Below, piece by piece: positions 4,374 through 22,085 of a stretch of DNA of 64,000 nt. The stretch comes from Burkholderia savannae. Its GTDB lineage: Bacteria > Pseudomonadota > Gammaproteobacteria > Burkholderiales > Burkholderiaceae. The notes beneath the pieces were generated by a model. That model had not been told where the DNA came from. It ran no database searches and was given only the letters and a program-made list of their open reading frames with translations. Each line of letters starts with the position of its first letter. Positions within the stretch are counted from its first letter, which is position 1. The translations under genes and the position numbers were made by a program. The stretch lies in assembly GCF_001524445.2 (NCBI RefSeq), contig NZ_CP013417.1, positions 1,116,001 through 1,180,000 on the forward strand, in the 5' to 3' direction.

Positions 4374-4569
4374 ATTCGGGGCCGGTTTTCCGGCCGGCCC
4401 GGGGGGCGCACCGCGCGCGCCATCTGTTGTATTCACGCCGCGCCACTGTGTCCGGAAACGACGCAATCCGGCGATTTGCGGCGCACGGGCATCAGTCGAC
4501 CTAGTAATGTCCCTATAATGGCCGTGCCGTAAAATCGGGCCCCGGCAAGGCCGTCAAGAGGAGAGCGTT

Positions 4570-5535
4570 TTGGCGAGAACGAAACCCACGCGTGCGAATC
4601 CGGCTCCCGGCTCGGGCGTCATTTTCGCGTTGCGAGCCATCGGTCTCGTGTTGCTCGCCCGCTGGCTCTTCTCGATGTCGCTGATGGGCTATCGCGCGTC
4701 GCTGTCGGCGATGGCGTCGTCGCCGTGGGCGTGCATCAACGTCGTCCTCATGTTCCTGCTGCTGGTGCTCCCGGGCGCGCAGGCGCGCGCCGAGCGCCCG
4801 TTCCATCCGCTTCCGCAGTGGCTGCGCCAGGCGCTGCGCTTCTTCGCGCTGCTCGGCTTCCTGTTTGCCGTGTGGTCGGTCGGCGTGTTCACGTGGGCGG
4901 CCGGCTGGCGCCGCGCGCTGCATGCGCTGACGCTCAGCAACGGCTGGCTGCTCGCCGCGCCCGCGCTCTATGCGGCCGTCGTCTGGATGTGCCGGCCGCG
5001 CGCGCTGTGGCGCACCAACGTCGCCGCGCGCCGCTATGCGATCGGCCGCTACGCGATCTCGCTCGATACGCTCACGCGCACCGTCGTCGTCTGGATGGAA
5101 AGCCGCAAGGTCGGGCAATACGACGCGCGCGAGCTGTCGGTCCGCTGGCCGAACGGGGCCGAGCCGCAGCCGTCCGCTGCGTCTTGTTCCGCCGTGGCGG
5201 GCGCCGATGCGCCGGGCGCCGATGTGCCGGTGATCGATGCGCCGGCCGCCGTTCCGGGCAGTGACGCCCCGGTCGCCGCCGCGCAACCGGATCTCGCCGC
5301 GCAGCCGGGGGCCGCCGCGCCCGCCGCGCCGCCTGCGTCGACGAAAACGCCGTCGTCGGCGCGGCCCGCGCCGCCCACGGGCGGACGGTTCGCGCGGCCG
5401 AAGCTCGAGCTGCTGTGGGATTCGCCCGCCGCAGTCGGCCATAACCGCCAGATCGTGATGCGCACGCCGCTCGCGACGGAAGGAGACCGCGTCGCGGCGC
5501 GTGCGCTTGACGCATCGCTCAAGCAGGTCGCGTGA
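4570..5535 (+). CDS. Uncharacterised inner-membrane protein with Ala/Pro-rich linker
   Basis: I do not recognise the family. The 321-aa product has about four hydrophobic segments in the first 145 residues (near 18-40, 55-75, 95-118 and 125-145). A soluble part follows, then an Ala/Pro/Asp-rich low-complexity stretch at about 200-280 and a short basic C-terminus. The start is a TTG at 4570 preceded by AAGAGGAGAG; no better ATG fits the N-terminal membrane segment. It is followed after 55 nt by the DUF2214 gene and the two may be co-transcribed. Confidence 0.75.
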   Translation: MARTKPTRANPAPGSGVIFALRAIGLVLLARWLFSMSLMGYRASLSAMASSPWACINVVLMFLLLVLPGAQARAERPFHPLPQWLRQALRFFALLGFLFAVWSVGVFTWAAGWRRALHALTLSNGWLLAAPALYAAVVWMCRPRALWRTNVAARRYAIGRYAISLDTLTRTVVVWMESRKVGQYDARELSVRWPNGAEPQPSAASCSAVAGADAPGADVPVIDAPAAVPGSDAPVAAAQPDLAAQPGAAAPAAPPASTKTPSSARPAPPTGGRFARPKLELLWDSPAAVGHNRQIVMRTPLATEGDRVAARALDASLKQVA

Positions 5536-5590
5536 CGCCGGCGGGCCGGCTCGCGCCGCCGCGTCCGCCTGGCCGACACAAGGAGGACCG

Positions 5591-6060
5591 ATGCTGACCG
5601 TTCGATGGTTGCTCGCCGCCGTCCATTTGCTCGCATTCGGTTTCGCGCTCGCGTCGATCGCCGCGCGCAGCCGTGCGCTCAAGCGCGTCGCCGCGTCGCC
5701 GCGTCGCGGCAGTCCGCCGATTTGCCCGACGTGTTCAGAGCCGACGCGATCTGGGGCGTGTCCGCGCTCGTGCTGATCACGACGGGCATCGTCCGCGCGT
5801 TCGGCGGCTTCGAGAAGGGCGGCGAATACTATCTGCACGCGCCGCTCTTTCATCTGAAAATGGGCGCGCTCGCGCTGATCCTCGTGCTCGAACTGATTCC
5901 GATGACGGGCCTCATCCGCTGGCGCGTGACCGCGCGGCGCGGGATGCTGCCGGATCTCGCGCGCGCGCCCGCGTACGCGCGGATCGGTCACGTGCAGGCG
6001 ATGCTCGTCGTCGTGATCGTGTTCGCGGCGGCCGGGATGGCGCGCGGCGTCGGATTCTGA
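5591..6060 (+). pseudogene. DUF2214-type membrane protein, frame broken at an octamer repeat
   Basis: The ATG at 5591 (after AGGAGG at 5581) starts a good N-terminus, MLTVRWLLAAVHLLAFGFAL, but the frame runs into PRRGSPPIC and stops near 5778. The rest of the protein, from ADLPDVFRADAIWGVSAL to the stop at 6060, continues in another frame. The break falls in three perfect copies of CGCGTCGC (5684-5707). Removing one copy reads KRVAASRQSADLPDVF and restores a continuous 153-aa, four-helix protein matching the family's usual length. The gene is therefore off by one octamer: slipped-strand phase variation, recent inactivation, or an assembly error. Confidence 0.88.
5684..5707. repeat. Intragenic octamer tandem repeat CGCGTCGC x 3
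   Basis: Three perfect adjacent copies inside the DUF2214 coding region. With two copies the gene is in frame; with three it is out of frame. Confidence 0.95.
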
Positions 6061-6202
6061 CGCGCCGCAGGCGACGCATGGGGGGGTGTGTGCCTGCGCA
6101 AATGAGGGCGCGGGCGCCGCTGCATCGCGGCACGCATCGCCGCCGAGCTCGTTCGCGGCTTGCGCATGCGTCGCGCGCGCGGCGCCTCGGGCGCGTCTTC
6201 CG

Positions 6203-7375
6203 TCAAACGACGTTCTTCTCGACGATCGGCCGGCCTTCCAGCACGCGCTCGAAGCCGAGCGGCGACAAATCGAGCGAATCGTACCGTCCGAGCGCGATCA
6301 GCTCCGCGACGCCGCGCCCCGTCGCCGGCCCCTGCTGCAGCCCGTGCCCCGAGAAGCCGTTCGCGAAGATGCAGTTGTCGACGTCCGGATGCGGCCCGAT
6401 GATCGCGTTCTGGTCGAGCACGTTGTACTCGTAATAGCCGGACCAGCTGCGCGCGACCCGCAGCGCCTCGAACTGCGGCACGCGGTGCGCGAGGGTCGGC
6501 CAGATCAGCTCGTCGAAGAGCGCGTGGTCGACGTCGTCGAGCGGCAGATCGTCGAAGTCGCGCTCGGGCGGCGGCGCCGCGCCGCAGATGAACGACGCGC
6601 CTTCCGGCCGGAAATAGACGCCGCTCGGATCGATGACGAGCGGGCAGCGCGGCAGCACGGCGGGCGACGTCACGTTGAAGATGCTGCGGCGGCGCGCGTG
6701 AACGGGCAGGTCGACGCCGACGAGCGCCGCGATCGAGCGCGCCCACGGGCCGGCCGCGTTGACCATCGCGTCGCAGTCGAACGCGCGGCCGTCGGCCGTC
6801 AGCAATTGCGTGACGCGCCGCCCGTCGACGCGCGCGCCCGTCACGTCGGCTCTCACGTATTGCGCGCCGAGCGCGCGCGCCTTCCGGCGCAGCGCCTGCA
6901 CGAGCCCGTAGCCGTCGAACCATCCTTCGCCGCGCTCGCCGTAGCAGCCGGCGGCGAGATCGTCGGCGTGCAGCCATGGAAACGTCGCGGCGAGCGCGTC
7001 GCGCGGCAGATAGCGGATTTGCGCGCCGAGCGACGTCTGCAGCGCGTGGTTCTCGCGCAGCGTCGCGTCGCCCGCGGGCGTCGCGAGAAACAGGTAGCCG
7101 CCTTCGTGCAGATCGATCGATGGGCGCTCGCCGTCCACCGCGAGCCGCTCGCCGAGCGAGCGCAGGAATTCGATTCCGAAGAGCGACATCCGGATCGACA
7201 GCGGCGTCGAGAACTGCTGGCGGATCGACGCCGCGGACAGCGCGGACGACGCGCGCGCATACGTTGGATCGCGCTCGATCACGGTCACGGAGATGCCCGG
7301 ATCGAGCGTGCGCAGGAAATAGGCGGTCGCGCTGCCGATGACGCCGCCGCCGACGATGACGACATTCGAATGCAT
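6203..7375 (-). CDS. FAD-dependent oxidoreductase, DAO family
   Basis: A 390-aa protein. The N-terminal dinucleotide-binding motif VVIVGGGVIGSATAYF (residues 5-20) and the C-terminal NGFSGHGLQQGPATG segment near 350-366 are typical of D-amino-acid/glycine/sarcosine oxidase-type flavoproteins, which oxidise C-N bonds of amines or amino acids. No signal peptide is present, so it should be cytoplasmic. It lies 98 nt downstream of a periplasmic amino-acid-type binding protein on the same strand, suggesting that the imported compound is its substrate. The exact substrate is not determined. Confidence 0.85.
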   Translation of the reverse strand: MHSNVVIVGGGVIGSATAYFLRTLDPGISVTVIERDPTYARASSALSAASIRQQFSTPLSIRMSLFGIEFLRSLGERLAVDGERPSIDLHEGGYLFLATPAGDATLRENHALQTSLGAQIRYLPRDALAATFPWLHADDLAAGCYGERGEGWFDGYGLVQALRRKARALGAQYVRADVTGARVDGRRVTQLLTADGRAFDCDAMVNAAGPWARSIAALVGVDLPVHARRRSIFNVTSPAVLPRCPLVIDPSGVYFRPEGASFICGAAPPPERDFDDLPLDDVDHALFDELIWPTLAHRVPQFEALRVARSWSGYYEYNVLDQNAIIGPHPDVDNCIFANGFSGHGLQQGPATGRGVAELIALGRYDSLDLSPLGFERVLEGRPIVEKNVV

Positions 7376-7473
7376 CGAAACTCCAAGGCAAAGGCGCGAT
7401 GCGCGCCGGTCGGGAAAAAGGCCGCGCGCGTGCAGCGCGTCGCGTGCGGCCCGCCGAATTCAGGGGCGGCCGA

Positions 7474-8622
7474 TCAGCCCCCCTTCGTGACGATCGTCTG
7501 CCATGCGCCGTTTTTCACCTGATAGAGCGTCGACATCCCGCTCTTGAGCGATCCGTCGCCGCCGAACGCGATGCGCCCGGTGATGCCCTCGAAGTCGATC
7601 TTCTTCAGCGCGGGCTGATACGCGCCCGGCTCGGTCGAGCCCGCCGCCTGCATCGCCCTGATCGCGGCCCACGTCGCGTCGTAGCCGAATTGCGCGTACG
7701 ACAGCACGTCGACGCCGAAGCGCTTCTTGAAGCGCGCCTCGAAATCCTTGCCCTGCGGCAGCTGGTCGAGCGGCCGGCCGTATTCCCACGCCATCGCGCC
7801 TTCGGCCGCCGGGCCCGCGATCTTGATGAATTCGGCGTCCTTCACGCCGCCGCCGCCGACGAATTGCGCGGCGAGGCCGAGCTGCTTCATCTGCTTGATG
7901 AAATTCGCCGCGAGCGAATCGAGGCCGCCGAAGAAGATCAGATCGACGTTCTTGCTCTTGAGGCTGGTGATCTGCGCGCGGAAGTCGACTGCCTGGTTGC
8001 TCGTGTATTCGCGCGCGACGATCGCGCCGCCTGCGGCCTTCACCGCCTTGTCGAATTCGTCGGCTTCGCCCTGGCCGAACGCGGTGCGGTCGTCGACGAT
8101 CGCGATCCGCTTGGCCTTCGACACGTCGATCGCGTAGCGGCCCGCGTTGCCCGCGTTCTGGCCGTCGGTCGCGATCACCATGAACACGTTCGCGAGCCCG
8201 CGCGACGTGATGACGGGATTCGTCGCGGCCGGATCGATGACGGGGACGCCCGCCTTGTCGTAGACGACCGATGCGGGAATCGTCGTGCCCGAATTGAAGT
8301 GGCCGACGACGACCGACACCTTCTTGTCGACGAGGCTCTGCGCGGCCTGCACGCCGATCCGCGGATCGGCCTGATCGTCCTCGACGACGAGCTCGAAGCG
8401 CGCGGGCTTGCCGGCGATCTTGATCTTCTGCGCGCGGGCGTCGTCGATCGCGAGCTGCACGCCGTTTTGCAGATCCTTGCCGTAGCCCGCGTTGACGCCC
8501 GTGAGCGGCGCGGCGAAACCGATCTTGACGGGCGTGTCGTCGGCGGCGCGCGCGGCGCCGGTTGCGCCGCACGCGAGCGCGGCGGCGAGGGCGAGGGAGG
8601 ACAGGGGCGAGCGGAGTCTCAT
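7474..8622 (-). CDS. Periplasmic binding protein of a branched-chain amino-acid-type ABC transporter (LivJ/LivK-like)
   Basis: A 382-aa protein with a clear signal peptide (residues 1-26, ending GAARA). The type 1 periplasmic-binding fold shows as PVKIGFAAPLTGVNAGYGKD, VVVGHFNSGTTIPAS near 110 and the AYAQFGYDATWAA-like segment near 305 (sequence SYAQFGYDATWAA). It captures branched-chain or other hydrophobic amino acids or amides for a Liv-type importer. No permease or ATPase gene is adjacent, so the protein probably uses a transporter encoded elsewhere. The FAD oxidoreductase follows on the same strand. Confidence 0.88.
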   Translation of the reverse strand: MRLRSPLSSLALAAALACGATGAARAADDTPVKIGFAAPLTGVNAGYGKDLQNGVQLAIDDARAQKIKIAGKPARFELVVEDDQADPRIGVQAAQSLVDKKVSVVVGHFNSGTTIPASVVYDKAGVPVIDPAATNPVITSRGLANVFMVIATDGQNAGNAGRYAIDVSKAKRIAIVDDRTAFGQGEADEFDKAVKAAGGAIVAREYTSNQAVDFRAQITSLKSKNVDLIFFGGLDSLAANFIKQMKQLGLAAQFVGGGGVKDAEFIKIAGPAAEGAMAWEYGRPLDQLPQGKDFEARFKKRFGVDVLSYAQFGYDATWAAIRAMQAAGSTEPGAYQPALKKIDFEGITGRIAFGGDGSLKSGMSTLYQVKNGAWQTIVTKGG

Positions 8623-9016
8623 GTTCTTTCCTTGTAGGCGATGCGCGAACGGGACGCGAGTGGCGCGGATGCACGAAGCCCGCGTCGCGGCCGGCGGGTC
8701 GGCTCGGCGCGGCGAAGCTGGCTTTCCGATTTATAGAAGGCCAAATTGGGCGAGTCTTGTCGATTTGCGGCGCATCGGATGCGGATTTGCGCATAGCCGC
8801 GCGACGGCGGGCGAGGGTGGGAAATGGCGGGGCGGCCTCGATTCTGCAGACTGTTGGCGATTGGCGCCGCGCTTGCGTGCGTGCGGGTGAGCGGCGCATT
8901 GCGGCAGAAGGCGGCGCCCGGCGGCCGTGAGCGGGCGGAGGGGAGGGTGATCGAAAGAACGGCGGATGGGCCGCTCGCAGGTTGCGCTTCGCGCAAACGG
9001 GGCGATGCTCGATGCC

Positions 9017-9184
9017 GGCAAACGGCAAACGGCAAACGGCAAACGGCAAACGGCAAACGGCAAACGGCAAACGGCAAACGGCAAACGGCAAACGGCAAAC
9101 GGCAAACGGCAAACGGCAAACGGCAAACGGCAAACGGCAAACGGCAAACGGCGAACGGCAAACGGCGAACGGCGAACGGCGAAC
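9017..9184. repeat. VNTR, heptamer GGCAAAC x 24
   Basis: Nineteen perfect copies of GGCAAAC (9017-9149) are followed by five more units that are GGCAAAC or the variant GGCGAAC (9150-9184). The variant units lie only at the right edge, as expected for an array that expands from its other part. Confidence 0.97.
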
Positions 9185-9387
9185 GATGAGCAGCACGCAG
9201 AGAGCGGAAAACGGAAGGCGAGAGAAACAGAAAGACGGGAGCGGAAGTGCGGCAAGCGGAAACCGATGTGATCGCGGATGCAGCGAGTGCGCGCCGTCGA
9301 CGAAGAAGGTACGGCCCACCGTTCTCGCCGCTCGATGCGATTCCGATTTCGTGCGACGGTTCGCCTGCGCGCAACCGATCGGTCGTC

Positions 9388-9612: not shown

Positions 9613-11715
9613 TCAGACCGTCGCGATCAGCGGATCGCTCGTGCTCGGCCGGCCCGTCTCGACGTGCCCCGCGAAGCGGCGCAGGAAGCCGTTCGGCGCG
9701 CCGTCGGAGACGGTGAGGTCGTACCAGCTGTGGCTGTCGCGCAGATCCCAGTAGTCGTTGATCCGCTGGCCGGGCTTGAGCTCGTAGACGCGCGGGCTGT
9801 CGTTGCCGTACGCGTTCGTCACCGTGAGCCGCACCGTCGCGCGGCCGCGGTTCGACAGGCGCAGCGTGACGTTGCCGTTCGCGACGTCGTAGCCGTAGAT
9901 CACTTCCGGGTTCGCGGCGAGGCCGAGCGCCGCGGCGGTCGAGCCGCGGAACTGGCACAGGAAGCCGTTCGGGCCGTAGACGGTCAGGTCGTAGATGCTC
10001 AGCGTGAGCGCCGTGCTCCACTCATCGGACAGGCGCTTGTGCGCGTCGACCGTGTACGCCCACGGGCCGTCGGGGCGATTGCCGGCCGTCACCTGGAACG
10101 ACGCGCCCGCGCGGCCCGTGTTCGCGAAGGTCAGCTTGAACTTGCCGGTCGACTTGTCGATGCGGCCGAGCACGAAGAGCTCGTACGGCAGCGCGCGCGC
10201 GGCGCGCAGGCCCGCTTCCTGTTTCGGCATCGATTGCGCGACGGGCGGCACCGGCACGTAGCTCGGATGGCGATTGCGATCGGGCGGCGCGTAGGCGCTC
10301 GTGTCGGGCAACTGCGGCCAGCTGTCGTCGGGGCTCGCGAAGTTGAACGCGGACGTGAGGTCGCCGCACACCGTGCGGCGCCACGGCGTCACGTTCGGCG
10401 CGCGCACCGAATAGCGATCGTTGAAGCGCGCCTCGACGAATTGCAGCAGCGACGTGTGATCGAACGTCTGCGAGCAGACCCAGCCGCCCTTCGTCCACGG
10501 CGACACGACGAGCATCGGCACGCGCGGCCCGAGCCCGTACGGCCCGGCCATGTGCGTCGCGTCGCCCGGGAAGATCTCGCCCGCCGCCGACACCGTCGAC
10601 AGCCCGTTGTCGCGCGATTGCGGCGCGAACGGCGGCGCGACGTGATCGAAGAAGCCGTCGTTTTCGTCGTACGTGATGAAGAGCGCGGTCTTGCTCCACA
10701 CGTCCGGATTCGACGTCAGCGCCTTCAGCACCTGCTCGACGTACCATGCGCCGTAGTTCGCCGGCCAGTTCGGGTGTTCGGAATACGCTTCCGGCGCGCA
10801 GATCCACGACACCTGCGGCAGCGTGCCGTTCTTCACGTCCTGCTGCAGCACGTCGAAGAGGGTGCCGCCCGCGCTGACGTTGGTGCCCGTGCGGGCCTTG
10901 TCGTACAGCGGCGTGCCCGGCTGCGCGTTGCGGTACTGGTTGAAGTAGAGGAGCGAGTTGTCGCCGTAGTTGCCGATGTACGGATTCTGCGTCCAGCCCC
11001 ACGAGCCCGCCGCGTCGAGGCCCGTGCCGACGTCCTGATAGATTTTCCACGACACGCCCGCCTGCTCGAGCGTCTCCGGATACGTGCTCCAGCCGTAGCC
11101 TTTCTCCTCGTTGCCGAGCACGGGGCCGCCGCCCGCGCCGTCGTTGCCGACGTAGCCGGTCCACATGTAGTAGCGGTTCGGATCGGTCGAGCTCGGGATC
11201 GAGCAGTGGTACGCGTCGCAGATCGTGAACGCGTCGGCGAGCTGGTAGTGGAACGGGATGTCGTCGCGCTCGAGGTACGCCATCGTCGTCGTCCCCTTGT
11301 TCGCGATCCAGCGGTCGTAGCGGCCCTTGTTCCAGGCGCCGTGCATGTCCTGCCAGCCGTGCGGCAGATCCTGCAGGAACTGCATGCCGAGATTCGACGC
11401 GTCCGGATGGAACGGCGGCAGCTCGGCCGGGCCGAGGAGCACCGGTTGATGGAACACCGACTTGCCGTTCTGCATCACGAGCGGGCGCGGATCGCCGAAG
11501 CCGCGCACGCCGCGCAGCTTGCCGAAGTAATGGTCGAACGAGCGGTTTTCCTGCATCAGGATCACGATGTGCTCGATGTCGCGGATCGTGCCGGTGCGGC
11601 GGTTCGCGGGAATCGCGAGCGCTTCGCGGATCACGGGCGGAAAGAGCTGCAAGGCGGCGGCGCCCGCCGTGCCGGCGGCGAGGCGCAGAAAGTCGCGGCG
11701 ATTCTGATTGGTCAT
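9613..11715 (-). CDS. plcN: Phosphocholine-type phospholipase C, Tat-exported
   Basis: A 700-aa protein of the acid phosphatase/phospholipase C family. A twin-arginine signal, RRDFLRLAAG, starts at residue 6. The catalytic-region motif ENRSFDHYFG is at 56-65, and the metal-binding region with TYDENDGFFDHVAPP is near 355. Two C-terminal DUF756-type repeats, each ending in a YDLTV...NGF pattern, occupy about 505-610 and 610-690. These features define the phosphocholine-hydrolysing enzymes known as PlcH/PlcN in Pseudomonas and Plc-1/2/3 in Burkholderia. It cleaves phospholipids outside the cell, giving diacylglycerol and a phospho-head group, and supports phosphate scavenging and host membrane attack. 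Which Burkholderia paralogue this is cannot be settled here. The gene is monocistronic. Confidence 0.93.
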   Translation of the reverse strand: MTNQNRRDFLRLAAGTAGAAALQLFPPVIREALAIPANRRTGTIRDIEHIVILMQENRSFDHYFGKLRGVRGFGDPRPLVMQNGKSVFHQPVLLGPAELPPFHPDASNLGMQFLQDLPHGWQDMHGAWNKGRYDRWIANKGTTTMAYLERDDIPFHYQLADAFTICDAYHCSIPSSTDPNRYYMWTGYVGNDGAGGGPVLGNEEKGYGWSTYPETLEQAGVSWKIYQDVGTGLDAAGSWGWTQNPYIGNYGDNSLLYFNQYRNAQPGTPLYDKARTGTNVSAGGTLFDVLQQDVKNGTLPQVSWICAPEAYSEHPNWPANYGAWYVEQVLKALTSNPDVWSKTALFITYDENDGFFDHVAPPFAPQSRDNGLSTVSAAGEIFPGDATHMAGPYGLGPRVPMLVVSPWTKGGWVCSQTFDHTSLLQFVEARFNDRYSVRAPNVTPWRRTVCGDLTSAFNFASPDDSWPQLPDTSAYAPPDRNRHPSYVPVPPVAQSMPKQEAGLRAARALPYELFVLGRIDKSTGKFKLTFANTGRAGASFQVTAGNRPDGPWAYTVDAHKRLSDEWSTALTLSIYDLTVYGPNGFLCQFRGSTAAALGLAANPEVIYGYDVANGNVTLRLSNRGRATVRLTVTNAYGNDSPRVYELKPGQRINDYWDLRDSHSWYDLTVSDGAPNGFLRRFAGHVETGRPSTSDPLIATV

Positions 11716-12097
11716 GTTGTCGCTTCCTTGTCTGGAGTGGGGCGAGACCGCCGGAGCGGCAGCGGCCGAAGGGGAGTTGGTCGCGATGCGTGATGCCGTC
11801 TTGCGCGGCAGCGCCGCCGCGCAACGCCGCCGGGAGGATATCGGGGAAACGGTGTCATCCGGATGAACGTGCGCCGGTGCGCATGCGGATGCCGTGTCGC
11901 GCGCGCGAGCGCGACGGCGCTCGCCGGCGCGGCGAGACGGGCGCAGGGGGGCCGGCGAGATTTCGTCGTGTGGCGCGAGCGGGCCCGCGACGCGCGCGGC
12001 CGACGTCTCGACGAAGGCGCGCGCGCCGATTGCAGCGGTGGCCGCGAGGAAGGTGGTTGCGGTGAGGTTGAGGGTGAAGGCGACGGCAACTGCGACA

Positions 12098-12277
12098 GCG
12101 GAGACGGCGGAGACGGCGGAGACAGCGGAGACAGCGGAGACAGCGGAGACAGCGGAGACAGCGGAGACAGCGGAGACAGCGGAGACGGCGGAGACAGCGG
12201 AGACGGCAGAGACGGCAGAGACGGCGGAGACAGCGAGGACAGCGAGGACAGCGAGGACAGCGAGGACAGCGAGAGCG
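12098..12277. repeat. VNTR, nonamer GCGGAGACA/G then GCGAGGACA, about 20 units
   Basis: Fifteen units of GCGGAGACR or GCAGAGACG (12098-12232), four of GCGAGGACA (12233-12268) and one decayed unit. Being a multiple of three, the array leaves long open frames on both strands (TAE, SP or GDS repeats). It lies between the phospholipase C start (11715) and the pdxY stop (12364). The rest of that gap (11716-12097) shows no gene. Confidence 0.95.
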
Positions 12278-14681: not shown

Positions 14682-14853
14682 GCGCGACCGCCGGAAGGCG
14701 GCGTGGCAGGGCGGGGCGGACGGCGGACCGGGGGGCGCGCGTGGCTCGTCCTGTTCGCGTTCGCGGCGGATTCGGCGGTCGTTCGTCGGCCGCTTTGTTG
14801 GCACTTTCGTGCACGAAGATACGCGCGTTGCCGACAGATGTATCGTCGTTGCC

Positions 14854-14931
14854 GCATCCGCATCCGCATCCGCATCCGCATCCGCATCCGCATCCGCATC
14901 CGCATCCGCATCCGCATCCGCATCCGCATCC
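14854..14931. repeat. VNTR, hexamer GCATCC x 13
   Basis: Thirteen perfect copies of GCATCC, in the gap between the alpha/beta hydrolase and the luciferase-like oxidoreductase. The converging genes end at 14681 and 15153. Confidence 0.97.
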
Positions 14932-15039
14932 GTGGGCGTAGCCGGAGCAAGATCCGCAGCAATAGCGGCATCTGCGTCAGCGGCGACGTTACCGATGACG
15001 ACGCCGACGCCGGCGCTGATATCGCATCTAGATCTATAC

Positions 15040-21560: not shown

Positions 21561-21760
21561 CGAAGGCACGAAGGCACGAAGGCACGAAGGCACGAAGGCA
21601 CGAAGGCACGAAGGCACGAAGGCTCAAAGGCTCAAAGGCTCAAAGGCTCAAAGGCTCAAAGGCTCAAAGGCTCAAAGGCTCAAAGGCTCAAAGGCTCAAA
21701 GGCTCAAAGGCTCAAAGGCTCAAAGGCTCAAAGGCTCAAAGGCTCAAAGGCTCAAAGGCT
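21561..21760. repeat. VNTR, octamer, 25 units in two blocks (CGAAGGCA then CAAAGGCT)
   Basis: Seven perfect copies of CGAAGGCA (21561-21616), one hybrid CGAAGGCT (21617-21624), then 17 perfect copies of CAAAGGCT (21625-21760). The two-block structure suggests two separate expansions. It lies 68 bp after hpnL. The rest of the gap 21494-22085 shows no gene. Confidence 0.97.
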
Positions 21761-22085
21761 CAAAGGGGAGCCGACCGCGCGCACGCTCGGCGGTTCCGCC
21801 GGCGATCGTCCGGCCGTGCGGCTAGGGGCGTTGCGATTGTCCTCCTTTCGCGTCGCGAAGCCGGGGCGATTGCCAACCGCGGCTCGCCGCCGAGTGCCGT
21901 CTCGACACGGCGCGACACGATGAGAAGCCACGAGAAGCCGTGAGCAGCCGCGAGAAGCGACGCGTCGCGGTGAAACGGACCACACTTCGAGCGCTTCATC
22001 GAGTCGCGCTTTCCGCGCACGATGATCGCGGTGCGGTATGCTTGCGCGCGTGTTCGATGTCACGCGCAAGTCGCGCCATTTCCCG

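What the first reader, a model, noticed from the sequence alone, without database searches (positions are those of the whole stretch)
5591..6060. DUF2214 membrane gene switched off by one extra copy of an 8-bp repeat
Seen: three perfect CGCGTCGC copies at 5684-5707 break a good N-terminus and a good C-terminus into two frames, and deletion of one copy gives a seamless 153-aa protein. Known: octamer tracts inside genes slip during replication and cause phase variation. Inference: the gene may flip on and off, or this isolate or assembly carries a recent expansion.
Basis: partly seen in the sequence, partly recalled or inferred. Interest (0 to 1): 0.75.

Follow-up and report, generated by a model that had tools for sequence, protein, structure and literature searches.

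The report
Membrane gene broken by repeat slippage
A small conserved membrane-protein gene in a Burkholderia genome is split into two reading frames by a short repeat that is longer here than in its relatives; this looks like a recent, ordinary copying slip rather than an on/off switch.

Summary
Three perfect CGCGTCGC copies at 5684-5707 split a DUF2214 (PF09980) gene into two frames. Period-8 runs this long appear in 0 of 120 randomised windows. The genome is of the Burkholderia pseudomallei group, species not established, and holds no other DUF2214 match. A match was found in 52 of 64 same-genus relatives, none with a stop inside; 12 gave none. The period-8 run is 24 bp here, 16 and 15 bp in the two nearest relatives, and 10-14 bp in 39 other loci. 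The downstream piece still shows purifying selection, so the break is probably recent. Of 57 non-triplet arrays in 800 kb, 9 were placed in a relative's frame and only this one shifts it; 39 could not be placed. Slippage frameshifts at 7-8-bp repeats are published for B. mallei (PMC1574311); a 3-copy 9-bp repeat did not mutate in 100 passaged B. pseudomallei lineages (PMC2799673). Best reading: a recent one-off expansion that inactivates the gene in this isolate. Phase variation is possible but unsupported; assembly error is untested.

The parts
5580..5587 (+). Shine-Dalgarno-like AAGGAGGA before ATG 5591
   Evidence: read directly; an AGGAGG motif is also seen before the start in six of the nine relatives (L009, L010, L021, L022, L023, L026); two were cut too short to show it and one (L024) was given on the wrong strand
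5591..5776 (+). N-terminal frame of the DUF2214 gene: 61 aa with hydrophobic segment 1 and the family-invariant H12 and R26, then out-of-frame residues to TGA 5774-5776
5684..5707 (+). three perfect tandem copies of CGCGTCGC
5605..6060 (+). second frame, open from ATG 5605 (151 aa); carries the DUF2214 profile match (residues 33-150 on profile 29-147)
5770..5776 (+). GTG of the second frame (5770-5772) next to the TGA (5774-5776) that ends the first: a possible restart site, not tested
   Evidence: read directly

Best explanation
The gene encodes a membrane protein of family DUF2214 with four hydrophobic segments (function unknown). Codons for an Arg-Val-Ala-Ala-Ser stretch between segments 1 and 2 form a two-unit octamer in the nearest relative (shown). 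In this genome, slipped-strand replication or a similar misalignment lengthened the array to three units (inferred), and the reading frame is broken there (shown). Translation from the normal start should end after 61 aa with only segment 1 made (inferred from the frame), so the gene is most likely null or nearly so in this isolate. The event looks recent, and like one of many repeat expansions in a repeat-rich lineage, not a dedicated switch.
For: Frames and tract. Period-8 run 24 bp here, 16 bp in G017 (92% identical DNA), 15 bp in G021, 10-14 bp in the other 39 of 42 loci examined. 52 of 64 relatives have a match, none with a stop inside; one of them (G025) matches in two pieces on one open frame. 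A 152/153-aa intact protein with a blank source (P0003/P0004) shares all 36 N-terminal residues with the window's first frame (P0004) and differs at 2 positions downstream (compared by eye). Purifying selection: downstream piece versus G017 dS 0.168, dN 0.032; versus G021 0.267 and 0.024. Repeat-rich lineage: in 800 kb, perfect arrays of at least 3 copies number 21 (period 7) and 16 (period 8), against 1 and 0 in 800 kb of G017. Of 57 non-triplet arrays there, 9 fall in a G017 open frame and only this one shifts it. Precedent: 5 of 7 coding SSR indels in passaged B. mallei had 7- or 8-nt units and shifted the frame (PMC1574311).
Against: No reads or named sister isolates were available, so an assembly error is not excluded. 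39 of the 57 arrays could not be placed, and of the 9 placed in frames only two have 7- or 8-bp units, so 'only this one' is weak. The 12 relatives without a match could have lost or broken the gene. Loss of function is inferred from the frame, not measured. The upstream piece has too few changes to judge selection (2 synonymous, 2 nonsynonymous on the window's branch). The source of P0004 is blank, so its closeness to the window's species rests on sequence alone.
Confidence: 0.75

Rival explanations
1. Phase variation: the octamer tract gains and loses units often, switching the membrane protein on and off in the population.
For: Unit length not a multiple of three, inside the 5' part of a gene; the lineage is rich in 7- and 8-bp arrays; a 3-to-4 octamer change has been seen in passaged B. 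mallei, though between genes (PMC1574311 Table 2).
Against: Only 3 units; a 3-copy 9-bp locus gave 0 mutations in 100 lineages in B. pseudomallei, although four loci with 6-12 copies also gave none in that strain (PMC2799673 Table 1). The tract is not kept beyond the two nearest relatives, and no relative with a match has a stop inside (52 of 64).
Confidence: 0.1
2. Assembly or sequencing error: the real genome carries a normal gene.
For: The gene is open in all 52 relatives with a match and constrained downstream; no reads could be checked. In one search five further frames taken from G017 also showed a stop or frame change in the window.
Against: An exact 8-bp extra unit is not the usual single-base error, and a 24-bp tract is shorter than ordinary reads (recalled, not tested). 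Of 47 G017 frames with a hit in the window, 8 were flagged: 2 for coverage only (o0 at the window edge, o37) and 6 for a stop or frame change: this gene, o6, o8, o13, o32, o35. The first half of o8 and o35 lie opposite minus-strand genes with Pfam domains. o6 is flagged where the G017 frame extends upstream beyond the 382-384-aa frames of the window and G021; o13 overlaps o12 and spans the array at 21563-21766; o32 has no Pfam match. So no other clear gene break was found, but o6, o13 and o32 were not settled.
Confidence: 0.12
3. The altered gene still makes a useful product: the 151-aa frame from ATG 5605, or a shorter protein restarted at GTG 5770 beside the TGA.
For: The second frame is open from 5605; GTG 5770 sits next to the TGA of the first frame.
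Against: The 5605 frame replaces hydrophobic segment 1 and invariant H12 and R26 with 34 non-hydrophobic residues, 12 of them Arg or Lys; none of the 89 protein hits covers more than 85% of this frame; by eye no Shine-Dalgarno sequence lies at the usual distance before 5605.
Confidence: 0.03

Closest known systems
Slippage indels at 7- and 8-bp simple sequence repeats in Burkholderia mallei ATCC 23344 (PMC1574311)
   Same: unit changes of heptamer or octamer repeats inside genes, with frameshift and truncation
   Different: there seen as changes between passaged isolates; here only inferred from comparison with relatives
VNTR loci of B. pseudomallei (PMC1853098, PMC2799673)
   Same: similar unit sizes, same species group
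   Different: the 32 MLVA loci have 6 or more copies in K96243, and the five listed inside genes all have units that are multiples of three (PMC1853098 Table 3); this array has 3 copies of an 8-bp unit inside a conserved gene
Contingency (phase-variable) loci with coding repeats, as in Haemophilus and Neisseria (recalled; no source opened)
   Same: non-triplet repeat in the 5' part of a gene
   Different: those tracts are longer as a rule (recalled); no length variation was shown here

Membership tests
DUF2214 (PF09980) | profile match over Pfam's cut-off | tested here: met
   115.8 bits against 34.1, profile 29-147 of 147, second frame only; the 61-aa first frame alone has no match
DUF2214 (PF09980) | N-terminal segment with residues invariant in 40 aligned relatives (H12, R26) | tested here: met
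   present in the 61-aa first frame but separated from the rest by the frame change
Phase-variable repeat locus | non-triplet tandem repeat inside a gene | tested here: met
Phase-variable repeat locus | tract long enough to mutate often | tested here: inconclusive
   3 copies; a 3-copy locus of another repeat had 0 mutations in 100 lineages (PMC2799673), but a 3-copy octamer between genes did change in B. mallei (PMC1574311)
Phase-variable repeat locus | tract kept in related species | tested here: not met
   16 and 15 bp in the two nearest relatives, 10-14 bp in 39 other loci
Phase-variable repeat locus | both lengths present within a strain or species | not testable with these tools
   no reads and one genome per species; P0004 suggests an intact allele in a very near genome, source blank
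Recent frameshift pseudogene | frame broken here, open in relatives, flank still constrained | tested here: met
   (constraint shown for the downstream piece)

The most novel reading that the evidence does not exclude
A low-copy octamer between the first two membrane segments of DUF2214 acts as a slow genetic switch in this repeat-rich Burkholderia lineage, so that subpopulations lack this membrane protein.
Probability: 0.08. Interest if true: 0.45.

Novelty: new member of a known kind. Interest (0 to 1): 0.2.

Why it matters
It adds one clear case of a gene interrupted by repeat expansion to a species group already known for mutable repeats. It also shows how sharply two close relatives can differ in short-array content (16 against 0 perfect octamer arrays per 800 kb), while only one of the 9 arrays that could be placed in genes shifts a frame. 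The gene itself has no known function.

Tried and rejected
A profile search of solved structures gave 5 weak matches, all Alba-type nucleic-acid-binding proteins, best E 0.042, not credited. Pfam at a lax threshold gave no convincing second family for 4 relatives. NCBIfam gave none for the window frame or P0006. The 61-aa frame found no homologue by the word search. Promoter and terminator scan found none; the tract does not fold better than shuffles (z +1.2, 181 of 200 shuffles fold at least as well). PLSDB held no record covering 80% of 4500-7500 (0 of 6 matching records; the five best cover only the part of the neighbouring oxidoreductase gene). Species: two published forward MLVA primers of B. 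pseudomallei K96243 (2 of 64 listed) had no match at up to 3 mismatches in G000, G017 or G021; there was no positive control, so this argues only weakly against B. pseudomallei. In one search the row L024 was given on the wrong strand and is meaningless; one search reads it on the right strand. Five other frames flagged were looked at as told under the assembly-error rival; three were not settled. Papers seen: PMC1574311 (passages, sections 10 and 30), PMC1853098 (passages, section 23 part 1), PMC2799673 (passages, section 7), PMC5311406 and PMC12096841 (passages); others only in search listings. Two papers in the library name DUF2214; neither title concerns Burkholderia.

Full report
Observation. 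The window holds three exact copies of CGCGTCGC at 5684-5707. A start with a good ribosome-binding site at 5591 opens a frame that passes through the tract and stops at 5774-5776 (61 aa). The Pfam family DUF2214 (PF09980) matches another frame that ends at 6060, covering profile positions 29-147 of 147. Randomised windows never gave a perfect period-8 run of 24 bp (0 of 60 dinucleotide shuffles, 0 of 60 order-5 Markov sequences), while the real window has four such runs, two of them parts of one array. The octamer pair occurs nowhere else in the 7.43-Mb genome. So the tract and the split frame are real features of this sequence.

Setting. The window is G000 contig 1, 1,116,001-1,180,000, from a Burkholderia of the pseudomallei group: B. 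mayonis and B. thailandensis proteins match the DUF2214 frame at 90-94% identity over 83% of its length. The species is not established. Two K96243 MLVA primers were not found. The gene is the only DUF2214 match in the genome. It lies between an upstream frame without a Pfam match (4570-5535) and a convergent FAD-dependent oxidoreductase gene at 6203-7375.

Comparison. Among 65 same-genus genomes including this one, 53 have a match with the B. thailandensis protein P0006; 12 have none, which may mean absence, divergence or loss. Of the 52 relatives with a match, none has a stop inside; 51 match as one piece, from residue 1-4 to 150-153, and G025 matches in two pieces on a single 144-aa open frame, apparently an in-frame shortening between the first two membrane segments. 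The period-8 run at the site is 24 bp here, 16 bp in G017, 15 bp in G021 and 10-14 bp in 39 other loci, out of 42 examined; three named loci (L009, L010, L011) appear to repeat genomes also present as L023, L024 and L026, so the number of species is smaller. The stretch between segments 1 and 2 is also where relatives differ in length. An intact 152/153-aa protein with a blank source shares the window's 36 N-terminal residues exactly (P0004) and differs at two downstream positions by eye. Its contig (4,077,888 bp) is not contig 1 of this genome (4,228,278 bp). The tool uses a blank source for proteins that the window encodes, which cannot literally hold here, so where it comes from is unresolved.

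Age. Compared piece by piece, without joining them, the downstream 116 codons show dS 0.168 and dN 0.032 against G017, and 0.267 and 0.024 against G021. On the window's branch 7 synonymous and 2 nonsynonymous changes were counted downstream, and 2 and 2 in the 31 codons upstream. The upstream counts are too few to judge. No second inactivating change is seen in either piece. This points to a recent break.

Genome background. In 800 kb of this genome, perfect arrays of at least three copies number 21 for period 7 and 16 for period 8; the 800-kb G017 stretch has 1 and 0. For period 4 the counts are alike (21 and 22); for periods 5 and 6 they are 18 against 8 and 20 against 5, so the excess grows with unit length up to 8. 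About 530 kb of the two stretches aligned, at 92.7% identity. Of 57 non-triplet arrays in G000 (at least 3 copies and 15 bp), 9 lie in a G017 open frame, 9 between frames, 22 lack an ortholog on one flank and 17 could not be mapped. Of the 9 in frames, seven have 4- or 5-bp units and no length difference, one 7-bp array differs by 36 bp and keeps the frame, and only this one shifts it. In the reverse test, 9 arrays were found in G017 and 0 of the 5 in a G000 frame shifted it. The repeats are thus common, and few are shown to break genes, in the part that could be tested.

Mechanism. The most likely history is a two-unit octamer, formed by similar codons in a stretch that tolerates length change, that lengthened by slipped-strand mispairing (inferred). 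The expected product is a 61-aa fragment with one membrane segment. Two alternative starts exist (ATG 5605, GTG 5770), but a product from either would lack segment 1 and the invariant H12 and R26. Loss of function is inferred, not shown.

Switch or accident. Published data from the same group make repeat slippage plausible: in passaged B. mallei, 5 of 7 coding repeat indels had units of 7 or 8 nt and shifted the frame, and one octamer between genes went from 3 to 4 copies (PMC1574311). They also make a fast switch at three copies doubtful: locus 3145k (9-bp unit) with 3 copies had 0 mutations in 100 lineages of one strain, whereas at 14 copies in another its rate was 6.05e-5 per generation. 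Four loci with 6-12 copies also failed to mutate in the first strain, so zero means only a low rate (PMC2799673). Repeat arrays in B. pseudomallei coding regions are reported to be mostly multiples of three (PMC1853098). No length variation within a strain or species could be examined here.

Verdict. A confirmed frame-breaking repeat, most likely a recent expansion confined to this isolate or its close kin; a new instance of a known phenomenon. Assembly error (about 0.12) and phase variation (about 0.1) remain open until reads and sister isolates are checked.

Noticed in passing
window 9016-9185, 21563-21766, 12094-12271, 14852-14932, 674-739: Long arrays of 6-9-bp units (for example CGGCAAA about 24 copies and AAGGCTCA about 25 copies); the fetched G017 counterpart shows no perfect array of 3 or more copies of these units.
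   Followed up: partly
L057-L096 against L097-L136: Perfect arrays of 7- and 8-bp units are far commoner in this genome than in its 93%-identical relative (37 against 1 per 800 kb), while 4-bp arrays are alike. The cause is unknown.
   Followed up: partly
window 4570-5535: The frame upstream of the DUF2214 gene has no Pfam match and differs in length between relatives (321 aa here, 300 in G017, 264 in G021).
   Followed up: no
G025 contig 13, 55514-55900: A relative's DUF2214 gene seems to be shortened by roughly 20 residues in the same stretch without losing its frame.
   Followed up: no
window 9613-11715, minus strand: Phosphoesterase family gene with bacterial phospholipase C C-terminal domains; the CGGCAAA array lies between it and the gene for a periplasmic binding protein at 7474-8622.
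   Followed up: no
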